Below are positions 26,209 to 33,065 of a stretch of 64,000 nucleotides of DNA, one piece after another. The position numbers were made by a program, and so were the translations under genes. Where the stretch lies: assembly GCA_007693595.1 (NCBI GenBank), contig REDI01000049.1:26299-90298 (forward strand), in the 5' to 3' direction. The stretch is from Deltaproteobacteria bacterium (GTDB lineage: Bacteria > Myxococcota_A > UBA796 > GCA-2862545). Each line of letters opens with the position of its first letter. Positions within the stretch are counted from its first letter, which is position 1. The notes beneath the pieces are model-generated. The model saw only the letters and a list, made by a program, of their open reading frames with translations, was not told the DNA's origin and did not search any database.

Positions 26209-28164
26209 GTGTCCCCTCGCCTCGTCTTGATGGTCTCCCTTCCCGCGTTCTTGCCGGTGCCTGCTGCGCACGGCGCGGACGAGCCCGAGGAGCTCATCGT
26301 GGAGGGGGAGCGTCGGCGCGCGGCCGATCCGGCGGAGGCCCGCATGGCCGTGACGACGATCGCCGTCGACGAGCGCCTGCCCGAGGGCGCGGATCTGGCC
26401 GACGCCATCGCCCGATCGCCTGGCACGACGGTCCAGCGGCTTGGAGGACTCGGGGACTTCAGCGCCGTCTCGCTGCGGGGCGCGGCGCTCCGGCAGGTTC
26501 AGGTCCACCTCGACGGCCTCCCGCTCAACCCCGACGGCAGCGCGGCCTTCAACCTCTCAGAGCTACCCCTGCGGGCCTTCGAGCGGGTCGAGATCTGGCG
26601 CGGCGCGGGTCCGGCGGCGCTCGCAGCCGCGCCGCTCGGCGGTGTGATCGATCTGCGAACCGCGGCGGATGCCCGAGCGCCCCTCACGGTCGAAGGCACC
26701 TTCGGATCCTGGTCTACGGGGAGGGGAGCCGTCCGCGGCGCCACCACGATCGGAGGGACCGAGATCTTGGGCGCAGCCGAGGTGCTCACCACGCAGTCGG
26801 ACTTTCGGTACTTCGATGACAATGGAACGGACGGCTACTGGCTGGATGACCGGATCCGGCGTCGAGCGAGCAACGACAAGCGCCAGGCGTCGGGTCTCCT
26901 GCGTCTTCGGAGCACCAAGGGGGCGGTGCGGCGGACGGGGCTGATCCTCCTCAACGCCCGCGACGAAGGCCTGCCTGGTCCCATCGGCGCGCCAGCGGAT
27001 GGGCGGCTCCGTACCCTCTGGGCGCTGGGTAGCGGGGGGCTCGAAGGAGCGCAGGGCCAGACCGCGCTCTCGGCGCGCGCGTGGGGCCAGCTCCGCGATG
27101 AACGCCTCACGCTGCCCTCAGGCGAGGCCATCCCGGAGCAGCAAGGTCACCTCGGCCTCTCTTTGGGAGCGGTACGACCCTGGGCACGCGGCGAGGTGGG
27201 CCTCACCCTTCAGGGCCGCTTCGATGGGCGGGCCAGGGTCCTGGAGCAGCCGGGCGCCGCCCGACTGACCTTGACCGGCGTCGGACACGGAACCCTCTCC
27301 TTGGCGAACGACCGCTTGCTTCTCGAGGCGGTGGCCCAGGGGCAGGGCTGGTGGGAGCAGCGTGAAGGGGTGCGGATCCTGCGCTTCGCGCCGCTTCCTC
27401 GCGTGGGTGCGCGCGCGCGGGCCTCGGACTCGGTCACCCTCCGCACGGCTGCGGGGCGGGCGGTCCGGCCCCCCGACTTTCTGGAGCTCTTCGGCGATCG
27501 CGGCCCGATGCGTGGGCGGTCCGATCTGCGTCCAGAGCGCGGCACCTGGGCGGACGCTGGCCTGCGCCTGCACGGCGAAGGCCAAGGTGCGGAGCTCGGC
27601 CTCTTCATCCACCACGCCCTCGATCGGATCGTTTACGTTCAGAACGCTCAGCGCGATCTGGTGCCCATCAACCTCGGTGAGAGCGTGGTCGGTGGGGTTG
27701 AGCTTGGTGGAGATGTGCAGCGTTCGTGGTTCGACGCACGAGCCAGCCTGAACCTCAGCCCGAGCTTCGTGGTGAGCGAGGTCTCGGGGCTCCACGGGCG
27801 ACGGCTTCCGCGCATCCCGCCCGTTGGTGGCTTCGTCGAGGTCGCGCTTCGACACAAGCGAATCGCCAGGGTGAGCTACGACCTCGCCTACGATGGCGGC
27901 AATGCGTGGGACGAGGCAGGGCTCTTCGTCGCGCCGCCCCGTGCGCTTCACGGCGCCTCCGTCCGACTTCAGCCGCGAAGTGGGCTTCCAGCGATCGGGA
28001 TCACGGTTCGAAACCTGACCGATACGCTCGTTGCCCCCATGTCCCGTGATCCCCGAAACCCAGCCTCGGGGGACGTGCTCCGCCCGCTGACCGACTTCGC
28101 GGGATATCCCCTGCCTGGACGGACGGCCTTGATCACCCTGACGTGGAGTCCATCATCCTCCTGA
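26209..28164 (+). CDS. TonB-dependent outer membrane receptor (BtuB-like)
   Basis: The 651-residue protein has a signal peptide (about 1-22), then the plug domain: LADAIARSPGTTVQRLGG, VSLRGAALRQVQVHLDGLPL and FERVEIWRGAGPAAL, a close match to BtuB/colicin I receptor plugs. The rest is a beta-barrel with alternating aromatic/polar strands. The last residue is not aromatic (it ends WSPSSS), which is unusual for an outer-membrane barrel. The start is GTG at 26209; few alternatives fit a signal peptide. It overlaps the next gene by 22 bases. It imports a scarce ligand using TonB energy; cobalamin is possible, but no riboswitch is seen upstream. Confidence 0.87.
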   Translation: MSPRLVLMVSLPAFLPVPAAHGADEPEELIVEGERRRAADPAEARMAVTTIAVDERLPEGADLADAIARSPGTTVQRLGGLGDFSAVSLRGAALRQVQVHLDGLPLNPDGSAAFNLSELPLRAFERVEIWRGAGPAALAAAPLGGVIDLRTAADARAPLTVEGTFGSWSTGRGAVRGATTIGGTEILGAAEVLTTQSDFRYFDDNGTDGYWLDDRIRRRASNDKRQASGLLRLRSTKGAVRRTGLILLNARDEGLPGPIGAPADGRLRTLWALGSGGLEGAQGQTALSARAWGQLRDERLTLPSGEAIPEQQGHLGLSLGAVRPWARGEVGLTLQGRFDGRARVLEQPGAARLTLTGVGHGTLSLANDRLLLEAVAQGQGWWEQREGVRILRFAPLPRVGARARASDSVTLRTAAGRAVRPPDFLELFGDRGPMRGRSDLRPERGTWADAGLRLHGEGQGAELGLFIHHALDRIVYVQNAQRDLVPINLGESVVGGVELGGDVQRSWFDARASLNLSPSFVVSEVSGLHGRRLPRIPPVGGFVEVALRHKRIARVSYDLAYDGGNAWDEAGLFVAPPRALHGASVRLQPRSGLPAIGITVRNLTDTLVAPMSRDPRNPASGDVLRPLTDFAGYPLPGRTALITLTWSPSSS

Positions 28165-29237
28165 GATCTGCGATGATCGTGCTCTGCGCCGCCTGTGTAG
28201 GGAGTGTCGAACCGGCGTGCCTGGGTCCCGAGCCCGCGGATCCGCCGCAGGCGGCGGTCCTCAGCACGCTGACGGAGCGCTTCGATGCCGGTACCTTGTC
28301 GGTGATCGAGCTCTCGGACCTTACGGTCTGCGATGGGGTCACCGCCGCCACAGGCGACAGCGTGGTGAGGACGCAGGACGAGGCCGTGATCCAGCTCGAT
28401 CGCTTTCGCTACGATCGGGTGCGGATCTTCCATCCTCCGCGCTGGCACGAGCCGGTCACGGAGTTCTCCGTGGGGCGGGGCGCCAACCCTCATGACGTCG
28501 CCCGCTGCGGTGGAGCGTGGCTGATCAGCCTGTACGAAGAGGACGCCCTCGGTCTGTTCGACGACGAGGGGCATCGGATCGGCGAGATCGGGCTGAGTGA
28601 ACACGCCGATGGCGATGGTCTCCCAGAGGCGAGCGGGATCGTCGGCCTGGGCGACACCGCCTGGGTGGCCCTCGAGCGTCTTTCGCGGACCTCCACGGGC
28701 TTCTTCCCGGAGGGCCCAGGGCGGCTGGTCGAGATCTCGTGCGATGTCCACCGCGTGAGCGGCTGGGTCGAAGCCCCGCCCAACGTGCAAGTCGACGTCG
28801 GGGCGGATGGCGTGATCCGGGCCTTCGGAGCGGATGGGCGGCTGATGCGCTTGGATCCAGAGCAGGCGGTGCTCCAGCCTGAGCTCACCTTTGAGAAACC
28901 GATCGCACAGGTGGCCTTCGACGCCGACGGGTACGGGGTGGTGATCACCCGCGGCGCGCGGTTGTGGCACGAGCTGTGGTGCGTCGATCCGCAGGGTGAG
29001 GTCGAGCCCTTTTTTGCGACAGACGCCTTCTTGCCCACCCTCGTACCCGCCCCGGACGGCACGATCTGGGCCGCGGTGCGTCGGGGGTGGGCCTCTGCCG
29101 ACAGCGCACCTGAGGGCTTTGTTGTCCACAAGGAACCCACAACCGGCATCTGGCGCTTCGAGCCCAAGACCTGTCGCCTGATCGACGACGCTCCGATCCC
29201 GACCGCGCTGCCGCCCTTCAGTATCGACTTCTACTGA
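28143..29237 (+). CDS. Putative beta-propeller surface lipoprotein coupled to the TonB receptor
   Basis: The 364-residue protein starts at GTG 28143, giving a plausible lipoprotein signal (lipobox LCAAC). ATG at 28173 would leave too short a signal. The body is built of repeated beta blades with motifs such as GLFDDEGHRIGEIGL, VGADGVIRAFGADGRLMRLD and AFDADGYGVVI, as in six- or seven-bladed propellers. It overlaps the TonB receptor gene by 22 bases, so the two are co-expressed. A surface lipoprotein capping a TonB receptor, as BtuG does for BtuB in Bacteroides, is a reasonable but untested model. Confidence 0.65.
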   Translation: MESIILLRSAMIVLCAACVGSVEPACLGPEPADPPQAAVLSTLTERFDAGTLSVIELSDLTVCDGVTAATGDSVVRTQDEAVIQLDRFRYDRVRIFHPPRWHEPVTEFSVGRGANPHDVARCGGAWLISLYEEDALGLFDDEGHRIGEIGLSEHADGDGLPEASGIVGLGDTAWVALERLSRTSTGFFPEGPGRLVEISCDVHRVSGWVEAPPNVQVDVGADGVIRAFGADGRLMRLDPEQAVLQPELTFEKPIAQVAFDADGYGVVITRGARLWHELWCVDPQGEVEPFFATDAFLPTLVPAPDGTIWAAVRRGWASADSAPEGFVVHKEPTTGIWRFEPKTCRLIDDAPIPTALPPFSIDFY

Positions 29238-29334
29238 ACGTGATCGGGCTGTGACACACCCGACGACGAGCCGCGCGGTCGGGAGTAGGGTGGGGCGACG
29301 GTCCGGCGATCTGAGTTGCGGGGTGTGCACTGAG

Positions 29335-29362
29335 TTGCTCAATCGCGACCTGACGGTATAAG
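29335..29362 (+). promoter_or_regulatory. Sigma-70-type promoter of the large RNA
   Basis: TTGCTC at 29335-29340 and TATAAG at 29357-29362 are separated by 16 bases. Each hexamer is close to the TTGACA/TATAAT consensus (four and five matches). Transcription would start near 29369. The box sits in a locally AT-richer patch just downstream of the preceding gene and 5' of the structured region. Confidence 0.6.
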
Positions 29363-29598
29363 CATGATTATGTGTCAGTATCGGACCTGCACAGCGGTCG
29401 CCACCGACCCTGTCGAGCGCATGAATGGGAAATTATTTGCCGATTCAAGCAAAGGAAAGAGGACGATCTACCGTGGGGTTCATGTTGGCACGGCGTCTGC
29501 ACAGAGTAGGGGTGCAGCCGGTAAGGCCGGTGAGCGACCGAAGGGAACACCCCGAAGCGCTCACCCGCTCGCCGGGTGGGGGCCTCCGGGCAGCCACG

Positions 29599-29609
29599 TG
29601 TTCTTTGAC
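29599..29609 (+). promoter_or_regulatory. boxA-like antitermination element in the large RNA
   Basis: TGTTCTTTGAC fits the boxA consensus of rRNA leaders (TGYTCTTTRA), which binds NusB/NusE and protects long untranslated transcripts from Rho. It lies about 230 bases after the predicted transcription start, and a stretch of AAAAACT follows as in several rRNA leaders. The match is by eye. Confidence 0.55.
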
Positions 29610-32130
29610 GTCAAAAACTCCATGGAGGGTGGTGACCCTGCCTCCGTTCGCGCTCCGAAACCTTCGGGTCGAGGAACACGGATCGCACTCACCTACTCGG
29701 ACATCGGACAGACCTGCTCGAACCGCCCAAGCGTCGCTCGCGACGCGCAAGCGGCCCCACCGCCTCGGCGGCGGGTGCGCGAGCCCTTCGGGGGGAGCGT
29801 CGGGTGGGGGATCGCGCCCTCGTGGCGTGGCGATGTGCCGGGGAAAACCTCGAAGGAGACCAAAGCCCATGGAAGGACAGGAACTCGAGGGTGGAGACAC
29901 CCGAGAGATCACGGACTCGTCGACGGAGCAAGGCCTCGAAGGTGACTGCTCCCTCCTCTCTCTCGCAGGGAGGTGGTCGACTCAACACCTATCGGCCTCG
30001 TTCGCGGGGAAGGTAGCGAAGAGTCGTAGCGGTATGGCGCTCACCCCGGTGAGCCTGTGTCGCTCGTGAGACGAGCTGGCATCGCAGCATGACCTCGGTC
30101 AGAGACGCGCGTAACGTCTCGCTGTCGGTGTCGAGCGCGGCCTACGGGTCGCCCCTTGAGTTCTCCCGCCGACGCGGGGGAGCACGAGGAAGCTCAGGGC
30201 GCGCGGCAGGCACCGCGGTCTTGGGTAGGGTTGGGAACCACCTCATGCTCCCAGCTCAGCCGGCAGGAGTCGGCGCGCGGACGAAGCTCCCCAGCTCTCG
30301 GCCGTAGGACCTGCGGATGACGCAGGTGGCTCGACGCGTACCCAGCGCGTCGGTCCTGCAGGTGGCGTGACGGCGTCACCCAAGCTCCCTCTCGGAGGGA
30401 GACCGTCCCGCGCACTGTGGTGGGTCGGAACGGGGGCTGCTCTCCTCGGAGCGCAGCCGATGGCTCTTTGGGGTCATCCTTGGCATCGAACCTGAGCGAT
30501 GCCAAGACGGGATCGCAAGATCCCATCGGCACAGATTCGTCGGTGCCGGTGCCGTCGAGCTGCGAGGCTCGGTCGGTGCGGCTCCCTTCGCGGGGAGCGC
30601 TCAGGCAGCGAACCATTACGCGTGGTTCGTCCGATGGACACGGTGCGACGGCCCGTGACCGCCGACACTTCGGTCGTCGGCAGGAGCTCTTCGGAGTCTC
30701 CGAGCCAGCCTGCCCCGGTCCCGGCGGCGCAGGGCGGTACGCTACGTCAGTAGCAGCAGTAGAGCGCGTCTCTCGCCTGAGAGGGAGGTGACTTGAGCTC
30801 GGCCTCGGTCGAGGGTGTCCTTCGGGGACACGACAGCGCACGACGCGCTCCGGGCGTCGGCGTCCCAGCCTCGGCTGGGTCCCGCGTGAGCGGGTGTGGG
30901 TGGCTTCGGCCCCTACGGATCACCGCGTGGCTGTGGTGGGTGCGACCCTTCGCGGGTTGGCACAAGTCAGCGCTTCGGCGCTGGCGGACGTCTGAGTTCT
31001 AGCGACGGACTCAGCGGGTGGGGACACCACTTCGGAGGTGTCGAGCGGTTTCGCTCATGGGGCTGCCTCTCGCAGTCAGGGGTGCCGACCCGACTCGGCG
31101 AACCGGGCTTCCGGCCGACCCTCTACGGCCGGGGCGTGTACCACGTCGGATAGGGTACACACTCGCCAGCGATGGTGGGGCCGAGGAGCGGGACCTTCGG
31201 GTAGCGCTCAGCAGCTCGCCCGGGCTGCACAGCGGTACGGCGCTCGCACCGTGCCGGGCCATCAACGCGTGCTCTTCGGGGCGCGCAAGGGTGGACAGAG
31301 GGTAGGGAACGGGTCTTCCCGTACCGAGGGATCCCGACGGCTCTTCGGAGCCGAGCCGCTCCCCGTCAAACGGGATGTGGTGTCTCACAGCAGGGTAGAA
31401 ACGCCAAGGAGGCAACGGCCGCGGTGACGCGGTGCGGCTGTCGACAAGGAATACCCTTCGAAGGGTCCGACATGCATCGCGAGGGCAGCTCCTCGCGAGC
31501 CCAGAGGTTCGCCTCGACGCTCGCAGGAAGCAGAAACGCGATGAACCCCAGAGCCGGCAGCAGGATGCAACAAGCCTGCAGAGCTGGTGCGGAGCAAGCC
31601 GGCGAGGTGGTGCGAAACCACGAGGTCGGAACGCGATGGAGTCGCATGGCCGCGGCTCCCCAAAGCCGCCTTCGGGTGGTGGGAGTAGACGCATCGGTCG
31701 TGGAGCGTGCTCGCAGCGAGTGCTCAGGCTTCGGTCTGAACTCGTCGTGAATCAGGCACGTGACGCGCGAACGGCAGAGGGGAACCGAGAACGGACGGAC
31801 TGCGCCAAGCGGCTCATCAGAAGTGGTGAGGGCGCGAGCGCGAGGGGCCTGGGTGGTGCGGTGGCGTGCCCCAAGGTCATGCAGGGCAGCGAGAGGCTTT
31901 GGTCTTGAGCGGCTGCGTCGAACGTCCTCAAAGAGAGGCGCCGGAGACGGCGTAAGCTCACAGAGGGCTGCGGGAGAGGCCAACGACCCGCATCGTCGCA
32001 AGTGCAGGCAGGTTTACACTAGCGTTTGTTGGTGTCTGCCCGCTCCCTGGTAGTCCACGGTCGCGCACTCGCGAGTGCGCGCTCAGCTCAGGTCCCGTTC
32101 GTCCTGTCCTCCATCGGCTTTACCGGCTGC

Positions 32131-32169
32131 TCGCCCCGATCAAGTTCGCTTGGTCGGGGCGATTTTTTT
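32131..32169 (+). terminator. Intrinsic terminator of the large RNA
   Basis: A 14-bp stem (arms 32131-32144 and 32149-32162, one G-U pair) is closed by a TTCG tetraloop (32145-32148) and followed by seven T (32163-32169). This is the clearest intrinsic terminator in the window and sets the 3' end of the non-coding transcript. Confidence 0.93.
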
Positions 32170-32285
32170 GTGGGGCGGGCCGAGCGTCGGCTGTTGGGCG
32201 TGGGCGCGTCGCCGGTCTGCGCTGCCGCGGTTGGGATCGAGGGTCGGTTCCCACCGCTGTCGAGACTCAGCGTCGGCATCCGCGC

Positions 32286-33065
32286 CTATTTCTTTGGAGG
32301 GGGCTTGGGGCGGCGGTAGACCCAGCGGGTCTCGGTGCTGGCCTGTTCGTCGTAGCGGTAGTCCATCACGACCGCCTCGCGGACCTCGATGGGTCGCGTG
32401 ATGCGGTGCTCGACGATCCAGCGGGCCAGGGCGCCTCGGGCTTGCTTGGCGTAGAAGCTGATCGTTCGGGCCTTCCCTTTGCTGACGTCTTGAAAGACCG
32501 GCGTGATGACGGGCAGGTCGAGAGCGTTCTGGTCGACCGCTCGGAAGTATTCTTGGGAAGCGAGGTTCAGGACCGTCGGCTCGGGGTGGGATGTGGCGAT
32601 CTCGTGGATCCTTCGTGCGATCTTGTCGCCCCAGAATGCGTAGAGGTTCCTTCCTCGGTCCGTGTGGAGCGAGGTGCCCATCTCGAGGCGGTAGGGATGG
32701 ATCCGGTCGAGGGGGCGGAGCAGGCCGTAGAGCCCCGAGAGGATTCCGACGTGGTCCTGGGCCCACCTCAGATCGGCCTCGGACAGCTGGTGGGCGTCGA
32801 GGCCTTGGTAGACGTCGCCTGCGAAGGTCAAGACGGCGGGGGTGCCCTCGCTGTGATCGGGGCTCCAGCTTGCGAAACGCTCGACGTTGAGCGTGGCGAG
32901 GTTGTCGGAGAGGTTCATCAGGGCCTTGAGGTCCCCGACATCAAGCCCCTTGGCGCGCTCGGCGAGCTCGATGGAGTCCTGGGTGAAGTAAGGTTCCGTC
33001 GAAGAGATCGATCGAGGCGCCGGGTCGAGCTGGAGCTTCTTGGCGGGGGAGAGCAGGACGAACAC
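32286..33065 (-). CDS. yaaA: YaaA-family peroxide stress protein (DUF328/UPF0246)
   Basis: The 259-residue protein matches the YaaA family along its length: MFVLLSPAKKL at the N-terminus, LMNLSDNLATLNVERF, AVLTFAGDVYQGLDA, LSGLYGLLRPLDRIHPYRLEMG and VLNLASQEYF. E. coli YaaA limits free intracellular iron and protects DNA from peroxide damage. The start is GTG at 33063-33065. The C-terminus is Lys/Pro-rich. It converges on the terminator of the large RNA, with about 115 bases between. Confidence 0.93.
   Translation of the reverse strand: MFVLLSPAKKLQLDPAPRSISSTEPYFTQDSIELAERAKGLDVGDLKALMNLSDNLATLNVERFASWSPDHSEGTPAVLTFAGDVYQGLDAHQLSEADLRWAQDHVGILSGLYGLLRPLDRIHPYRLEMGTSLHTDRGRNLYAFWGDKIARRIHEIATSHPEPTVLNLASQEYFRAVDQNALDLPVITPVFQDVSKGKARTISFYAKQARGALARWIVEHRITRPIEVREAVVMDYRYDEQASTETRWVYRRPKPPPKK

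What the first reader, a model, noticed from the sequence alone, without database searches (positions are those of the whole stretch)
29369..32169. A 2.8-kb, highly structured, protein-free transcription unit: candidate giant non-coding RNA
Between a promoter and a perfect terminator lie 2.8 kb with no credible gene, in a window otherwise packed with genes. The sequence shows at least thirteen perfect or near-perfect short hairpins, many closed by UUCG or GNRA loops, which are marks of a folded RNA. Known large bacterial RNAs (OLE, GOLLD, ROOL, HEARO) are under about 1 kb, so this would be one of the largest non-rRNA structured RNAs. I cannot match it to any of them. The role is unknown.
Basis: partly seen in the sequence, partly recalled or inferred. 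Interest (0 to 1): 0.95.

Follow-up and report, generated by a model that had tools for sequence, protein, structure and literature searches.

The report
Giant sigma-54-driven structured noncoding RNA
This stretch is one of three copies in the genome of a conserved, protein-free RNA gene, predicted to make a folded RNA about 2.66 kilobases long from a sigma-54-type promoter; it matches no RNA family in Rfam, which would make it one of the largest structured bacterial RNAs outside the ribosome, and it likely acts as a scaffold.

Summary
Window ~29512-32169 has no conserved protein gene and no Rfam match, a strong excess of capped hairpins on the + strand, and a fold far more stable than shuffles. 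Two diverged copies lie elsewhere in the genome. A 98-nt core (31538-31635), made into a covariance model, finds relatives in 34 of 63 genomes of the order and 62 of 377 of the phylum (own included), with strong covariation. A second helix (29916-29924 with 31440-31448) covaries across a 1.45-kb fast-evolving expansion segment, so the whole stretch is one RNA. Where both ends could be placed (16 loci), predicted lengths are 0.96-2.66 kb. Many relatives add a palindrome TGGGAA-N6-TTCCCA upstream; in 60 genomes promoter plus palindrome occurs 10 times, each time at this RNA. No neighbour gene recurs in more than 4 of 61 loci. RtcR, CsrA and Ro60 partners, phage origin and decayed-gene readings were tested and not supported. 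The function is not shown; my best reading is a trans-acting scaffold or particle RNA working like OLE, ROOL and GOLLD, but unrelated to them by sequence.

The parts
29426..29441 (+). palindrome-like upstream site TGGGAAATTATTTGCC, 60 bp before the -24 element (degenerate copy of TGGGAA-N6-TTCCCA)
   Evidence: exact palindromes at -58 to -61 in many relatives; all 10 places of the combined exact pattern in 60 genomes are at this RNA (the exact pattern is absent from the window's own genome)
29486..29501 (+). predicted sigma-54 promoter TGGCACGGCGTCTGCA (-24/-12)
   Evidence: the consensus TTGGCACG-N4-YTGCA occurs once in the whole genome, here
29512..32169 (+). predicted giant structured RNA, 2658 nt
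29603..29628 (+). 5' conserved block CUUUGACGUCAAAAACUCCAUGGAGG
   Evidence: its pattern found in 7 loci of 5 MAG assemblies titled Deltaproteobacteria or Proteobacteria, at least four of them contigs also reached as G genomes
29848..29878 (+). conserved block CCUCGAAGGAGACCAAAGCCCAUGGAAGG
29916..29924 (+). 5' arm of long-range helix P1 (8 of 9 pairs in the window copy)
   Evidence: covariation over 15 loci, 0 of 10000 permutations
29947..31394 (+). expansion segment inserted in helix P2, about 1.45 kb, fast-evolving but structured
   Evidence: short (about 50-180 nt between anchors) in many relatives; 160 compensated pairs among three paralogues against 93-122 in 7 shuffles
31402..31413 (+). 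3' arm of helix P2 (CGCCAAGGAGGC)
   Evidence: pairing read by eye
31416..31439 (+). helix P3
   Evidence: conserved in relatives; pairing read by eye
31440..31448 (+). 3' arm of long-range helix P1
31538..31635 (+). 98-nt conserved core (model R1), three covarying helices
32131..32169 (+). intrinsic terminator

Best explanation
Window 29512-32169 is one of three diverged copies of a conserved structured-RNA gene with no protein, predicted to be transcribed from a sigma-54 promoter as a folded RNA of about 2.66 kb that likely acts in trans as a structural scaffold. Shown from sequence: RNA-type covariation, no conserved reading frame, a long-range helix tying both ends of the expansion segment together, a phylum-wide family, no widely shared neighbour gene. 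Inferred: a dedicated enhancer-binding protein activates RNA polymerase with sigma-54 under some unidentified signal, the RNA accumulates, folds on its conserved core and builds a large particle, either with itself (as ROOL, GOLLD and OLE do) or with proteins encoded elsewhere, the lineage-specific expansion segments forming its outer parts. Confidence is about 0.95 for the RNA family, 0.85 for sigma-54 control and 0.35 for the scaffold role.
For: Family: 3 copies in the genome; DNA matches in 22 of 58 genomes searched, own included; model R1 hits 34 of 63 and 62 of 377 genomes. Covariation: 9 of 14 pairs in the 21-sequence seed; in 63 rows 98.9% of cells paired (71.3% shuffled) and 198 double-changed cells against 46.9 shuffled, 0 of 500 shuffles reaching either. 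Long-range helix P1: 8.53 of 9 paired, 6.75 for swapped partners, 0 of 10000 permutations. Recurrent GAR/RNG internal-loop module: 87 over 61 loci against 13.9 shuffled and 10 on the other strand. Promoter: 31 of 61 loci have a strict sigma-54 element, 17 of those 31 an upstream palindrome-like site (background 0.02 per 260 bp); all 10 places of the combined pattern in 60 genomes are RNA loci; palindrome alone: 20 of 28 sites at RNA loci, 8 elsewhere with no sigma-54 element recognised, 10 for the reversed-pattern control. Sigma-54 gene in 56 of 60 genomes, own included. Scaffold: no neighbour gene family in more than 4 of 61 loci, large conserved core with variable expansions, like other large ornate RNAs that form homo-oligomers (PMC12286853, passages read).
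Against: No transcript data were available; start and length are predicted. 30 of 61 loci have no strict sigma-54 match, some because the contig ends or the element differs by a base, but more distant lineages (for example L093, L097) seem to use another promoter. The exact palindrome pattern is absent from the window's own genome and degenerate in the window copy; the activator is not identified. The number of pairs with any double change (13 of 14) is not by itself decisive: 37 of 500 shuffles reach it. The recurrent module is scarce in the window copy (2, against 0.9 shuffled). In the paralogue fold 250 of 837 pairs fail in at least one copy, though fewer than in shuffles (294-326). Four genomes lack a sigma-54 gene match, two of them RNA-bearing but incomplete (G018, G055). 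Nothing here tests particle formation; the scaffold role is by analogy only. Patchy presence (62 of 377) means it is dispensable in many lineages.
Confidence: 0.5

Rival explanations
1. A sequestering RNA (sponge): many repeated loop and internal-loop modules would bind and titrate a regulatory or ribosomal protein, as CsrB-type RNAs titrate CsrA; sigma-54 control would switch it on under a stress.
For: A repeated module (87 occurrences over 61 loci) and invariant nucleotides outside helices in the core could be protein sites; sigma-54-driven regulatory RNAs exist (GlmY, abstract of PMC6075780 in the listing). CsrA is present in some RNA-bearing genomes of other families.
Against: CsrA itself is absent from all 20 genomes of the window's family that were searched, own included. 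The size and the single large core exceed what a sponge needs (inference).
Confidence: 0.2
2. A ribozyme or other RNA enzyme: the conserved core is a catalytic centre and the expansions are peripheral.
For: Invariant bases outside the helices of the core; covarying helices; conserved-core-plus-variable-periphery architecture.
Against: No match to any known ribozyme family in Rfam; no activity testable here.
Confidence: 0.15
3. A selfish or mobile RNA element (intron-like or phage-derived, as GOLLD and ROOL often are).
For: Up to 6 model hits in one genome and 3 copies here; patchy presence.
Against: The window RNA has no match in phage or plasmid records, and two exact core patterns none in viral contigs (diverged phage copies could be missed); neighbours looked at are ordinary or unassigned chromosomal genes and some positions are shared between species; no Rfam intron match.
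Confidence: 0.08
4. An RNA of the RtcR / Ro60-Y RNA repair regulon, which is also sigma-54 controlled in other bacteria.
For: Sigma-54 promoter with upstream palindrome.
Against: RtcR (PF06956) is not found in the window's genome nor in 19 of 34 RNA-bearing genomes of the order; Ro60/TROVE in only 4 of 60, not the own genome.
Confidence: 0.02
5. A decayed protein gene or chance GC-rich hairpins.
For: ORFs over 100 aa exist on both strands.
Against: Of ten tested none stays open in both paralogues; no Pfam or PHROGs match; compensatory changes.
Confidence: 0.01

Closest known systems
GOLLD RNA
   Same: Giant ornate bacterial RNA of unknown function; many members exceed 800 nt (PMC12286853, passages).
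   Different: No Rfam match here; no tie to phages or tRNA islands found; chromosomal with ordinary neighbours; predicted 0.96-2.66 kb in 16 measured loci; sigma-54 promoter.
ROOL RNA
   Same: Large ornate RNA with no known protein partner; forms an RNA-only cage (PMC12286853, passages).
   Different: 659 nt for the solved example; phage or prophage associated; no sequence match here.
OLE RNA
   Same: Large, conserved, complex RNA, about 600 nt (abstract of PMC12054373); studied as a ribonucleoprotein particle.
   Different: Mostly Bacillota; no sequence match; the window RNA is predicted to be about four times longer and has no recurring protein neighbour.
GlmY and other sigma-54-dependent small RNAs
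   Same: Non-coding RNA read from a sigma-54 promoter with upstream activator sites (abstract of PMC6075780).
   Different: A small regulatory RNA; no large conserved architecture (recalled).

Membership tests
GOLLD | match to the Rfam covariance model | tested here: not met
   no match at gathering score in the window or in 19 other loci; none at E up to 5 in 29250-32250
GOLLD | encoded in phages or prophages, often near tRNA islands | tested here: not met
   0 tRNAs in the 64-kb window; no phage-record match of the window RNA; 0 viral contigs for two exact conserved patterns; one relative locus (L093) has a tRNA about 4 kb from its core
ROOL | match to the Rfam covariance model | tested here: not met
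ROOL | homo-oligomeric RNA cage | not testable with these tools
   needs purified RNA and cryo-EM
OLE | match to the Rfam covariance model | tested here: not met
OLE | linked partner protein gene (recalled) | tested here: not met
   no neighbour gene family recurs in more than 4 of the 61 loci (flanks of some loci are short); nine recurring neighbours scanned are ordinary or unassigned
group I / group II intron, rRNA | match to the Rfam covariance models | tested here: not met
Csr/Rsm-type sponge RNA | CsrA present in the genome | tested here: not met
   0 of 20 genomes of the window's family, own included
RtcR / Ro60-Y RNA regulon | RtcR or TROVE gene present with the RNA | tested here: not met
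   RtcR not found in own genome; TROVE in 4 of 60, not own
sigma-54-dependent ncRNA gene | -24/-12 promoter with upstream activator site | tested here: met
   31 of 61 loci strict promoter, 17 of 31 palindrome-like site; the site is degenerate in the window copy
sigma-54-dependent ncRNA gene | transcription depends on sigma-54 | not testable with these tools
   needs RNA-seq or a sigma-54 gene removal

The most novel reading that the evidence does not exclude
A previously undescribed class of giant bacterial RNA, 1 to 2.7 kb, found across a phylum of delta-type bacteria (probably Myxococcota), with an rRNA-like plan of conserved core plus lineage-specific expansion segments, several paralogues per cell, and its own sigma-54 activator whose exact palindromic site, in the genomes searched, is tied to sigma-54 promoters only at these RNAs. 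It builds an RNA-based particle, which would make it the largest natural RNA assembly known outside the ribosome.
Probability: 0.35. Interest if true: 0.97.

Novelty: categorically new. Interest (0 to 1): 0.9.

Why it matters
Large structured bacterial RNAs are rare, and those studied have turned out to be ribozymes, machines or RNA cages. This family is predicted to reach about three to four times the size of GOLLD, ROOL or OLE, is found across a phylum, and appears to have its own sigma-54 control circuit, which makes its function directly testable by finding the inducing signal. The three core helices and the long-range helix give a ready covariance model for annotating it. The expansion-segment pattern offers another natural case, besides rRNA, of a large RNA growing by additions to a conserved core.

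Tried and rejected
Rfam at gathering score and E up to 5 (two sub-threshold matches, Ms_AS-1 on the minus strand at E 0.48 and a 15-nt PhotoRC-I piece at E 3.1, both read as chance). Protein readings. Partner-gene search by clustering neighbour ORFs: no family in more than 4 of 61 loci. RtcR, CsrA, TROVE as partners. Phage or plasmid origin. Literature: seven searches listed, by title and start of abstract, no paper describing such an RNA; the library lacks most subscription papers. I read passages of one paper only (PMC12286853); the others named were seen as abstracts in listings. An exact pattern for promoter plus palindrome misses the window's own copies, because the palindrome is degenerate there (searches show 0 in G000). 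No phylum outside the window's own was searched with the model.

Weak points told: the P1 test used 15 of 61 loci, those whose two arms I could recognise by eye in the output, and left out others with shifted or unclear arms; three of the 15 right arms (L032, L035, L104) lay outside the 400-nt position check, and the window's own helix has one mismatch. The 63 rows include two second hits within L030 and L037, and that alignment was fitted to the model's structure; the seed count was not. In one search the count of pairs with any double change (13) is reached by 37 of 500 shuffles; the other measures by none, or in the slid controls by none. Terminators were recognised in only 16 of the 31 loci with a strict promoter, and two of those picks (L037, L094) are doubtful. 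What I say of OLE, GOLLD and ROOL beyond the cited passages and abstracts, including OLE's linked protein gene, is recalled.

Full report
What was checked. The stretch 29369-32169 was read, its ORFs listed and compared with Rfam (0 matches at gathering score in the whole window, only two sub-threshold chance-like matches at E up to 5). There is no tRNA in the window. Twelve ORFs of 100 aa or more overlap it; ten were compared with the two paralogous copies, and all ten have an internal stop in L024 and nine of ten in L025. Six have no Pfam match and eight no PHROGs match. Hairpins with YUCG loops and at least 4 bp number 14 (1.1 expected from 100 dinucleotide shuffles), GNRA 10 (2.2 expected), both 0 on the other strand. 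The MFE is -1413 kcal/mol, 6.8 standard deviations below 15 shuffles, while a neighbouring gene stretch lies 1.2 above its own 12.

The family. The genome (4.9 Mb, 97 contigs) holds three copies: the window's, one at 72% identity over nearly its whole length, and one matching at about 70% at both ends with a diverged middle of similar length. In relatives, 22 of 58 genomes searched (own included) show DNA matches, concentrated in conserved blocks near window 29840-29952 and 31395-31640; in several the 1.45-kb middle is missing. An alignment of 21 cores (window 31538-31635 and equivalents) gave a consensus structure in which 9 of 14 pairs have at least one sequence changed on both sides with pairing kept. 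The covariance model R1 built from it finds matches in 34 of 63 genomes of the order and 62 of 377 of the phylum, own included, with 1 to 6 hits per positive genome. Aligned over 63 hits in 61 sources, 98.9% of cells form standard pairs (71.3% when shuffled), 198 double-changed cells stand against 46.9 shuffled (0 of 500 shuffles), and sliding the partner by 1 to 3 columns drops pairing to 28-48%. Thirteen of 14 pairs have double changes, a measure that 37 of 500 shuffles also reach.

One RNA, not two. In compact relatives a helix P1 closes a junction holding helix P2 and helix P3. In the window its arms are 29916-29924 and 31440-31448, 1.5 kb apart, with 8 of 9 pairs. In 15 loci whose arms I could recognise, 8.53 of 9 positions pair on average, against 6.75 when arms are swapped between loci; 0 of 10000 permutations reach the real total. 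The expansion sits inside P2; the distance between the anchors of the two arms is 1500-1515 in the window's genome, 859-873 in L040 and L043, 485 in L111 and often about 50-180 elsewhere. Across the three paralogues the expansion evolves fast but keeps structure: 160 compensated pairs there against 93-122 in seven column-shuffled controls, and 247 against 146-168 over the whole RNA; 250 of 837 pairs fail in at least one copy (294-326 in the controls). A recurrent two-helix module with a GAR/RNG internal loop occurs 87 times over the 61 loci, 13.9 expected, 10 on the other strand, but only twice in the window copy (0.9 expected).

Promoter and ends. A sigma-54 element TGGCACGGCGTCTGCA lies at 29486-29501; the strict form TTGGCACG-N4-YTGCA occurs once in the whole genome, here. 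Of 61 loci, 31 have a strict sigma-54 element upstream of the core. Of those 31, 17 carry a palindrome-like site within 260 bp, most often at -58 to -61 from the -24 element, sometimes also near -135 or -183 (background 0.02 per 260 bp; one of the 31 had only 17 bp of upstream sequence). In 60 genomes of the order the combined exact pattern TGGGAA-N6-TTCCCA, spacer, TGGCACG-N4-YTGC occurs 10 times, in 7 genomes. Nine of the ten have a core hit of R1 on the same contig just downstream; the tenth (G058:C453) is cut by its contig end but its downstream sequence matches other copies. The palindrome alone occurs at 28 sites in 20 genomes: 20 at RNA loci, of which one is inside an RNA body and three are promoters cut by contig ends (G058:C453, G050:C657, G046:C9; the last known only from its promoter and the first bases of the RNA), and 8 elsewhere with no sigma-54 element recognised within 260 bp, close to the 10 sites of the reversed-pattern control. 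The sigma-54 gene is in 56 of 60 genomes including the window's; of the four without a match, two (G018, G055) bear the RNA and are incomplete. I infer an activator whose recognised sites are dedicated to these RNAs; it is not identified, and the exact site is not in the window's own genome. In 16 of the 31 loci both ends could be placed: lengths 963 to 2664 nt, median 1453, the window's 2658.

Context. No neighbour gene family recurs in more than 4 of the 61 loci. Neighbours include YaaA and a TonB receptor in the window, Mfd near the C46 copy, and Rho, an E1 dehydrogenase, a histidine kinase, a Band-7 protein and TPR proteins near relatives. Some sites are shared between species, as expected for chromosomal genes. 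The window RNA has no match in phage or plasmid records, and two exact conserved patterns hit no viral contig.

What it is not. RtcR is not found in the own genome nor in 19 of 34 RNA-bearing genomes of the order. CsrA is not found in any of the 20 genomes of the window's family that were searched, though seven RNA-bearing genomes of other families have it. TROVE is in 4 of 60 genomes, not the own one. Rfam finds nothing in the window or in 19 other loci except one tRNA about 4 kb from the core in L093. OLE, ROOL and GOLLD are therefore analogues, not detectable relatives; the passages of PMC12286853 read give 659 nt for ROOL, over 800 nt for many GOLLDs, phage association for both, and homo-oligomers for all three. 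Seven literature searches listed no paper describing this RNA; the library lacks most subscription papers.

Mechanism. Shown from sequence: conserved RNA structure, no protein, long-range pairing, promoter-like and terminator-like elements, a family with expansions. Inferred: sigma-54-dependent transcription on an unknown signal, accumulation, and a scaffold or particle role in trans. I put 0.35 on the scaffold, 0.2 on protein sequestration, 0.15 on a ribozyme; the rest is open.

Novelty. By sequence the RNA matches none of 4227 Rfam families, and I found no described RNA combining this size, core-plus-expansion plan and sigma-54 control. I rate it categorically new as a family, while noting that the descriptive kind 'large ornate RNA' exists.

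Noticed in passing
L082-L085 and L087, about 83 bp upstream of the sigma-54 element: A more distant group lacks the TGGGAA palindrome but has a DnaA-box-like element (TTATCCACA and close variants, by eye) at a near-constant distance; it may mark a different activator.
   Followed up: partly
L093, L095, L097, L118, L092: Members with a clear core hit but no recognisable sigma-54 promoter, so the promoter type seems to have changed between lineages.
   Followed up: partly
G065: Six model hits in one genome, the most among the genomes listed, all of them weaker than those of the window's order.
   Followed up: no
L030:2834-2948, L037:8086-8207, L158:459-601: The core model also hits weakly upstream in the same RNA, around the P1-P2 junction, which suggests an internal duplication of the module.
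   Followed up: partly
G049:C7:3983-4000: A second perfect TGGGAA-N6-TTCCCA palindrome lies inside the RNA body.
   Followed up: partly
window 28143-29237: A 364-aa ORF with no Pfam match lies between a TonB-dependent receptor gene and the RNA promoter.
   Followed up: no
window 32286-33065: A YaaA family gene (peroxide stress) converges on the RNA terminator; it did not turn up as a recurring neighbour.
   Followed up: partly
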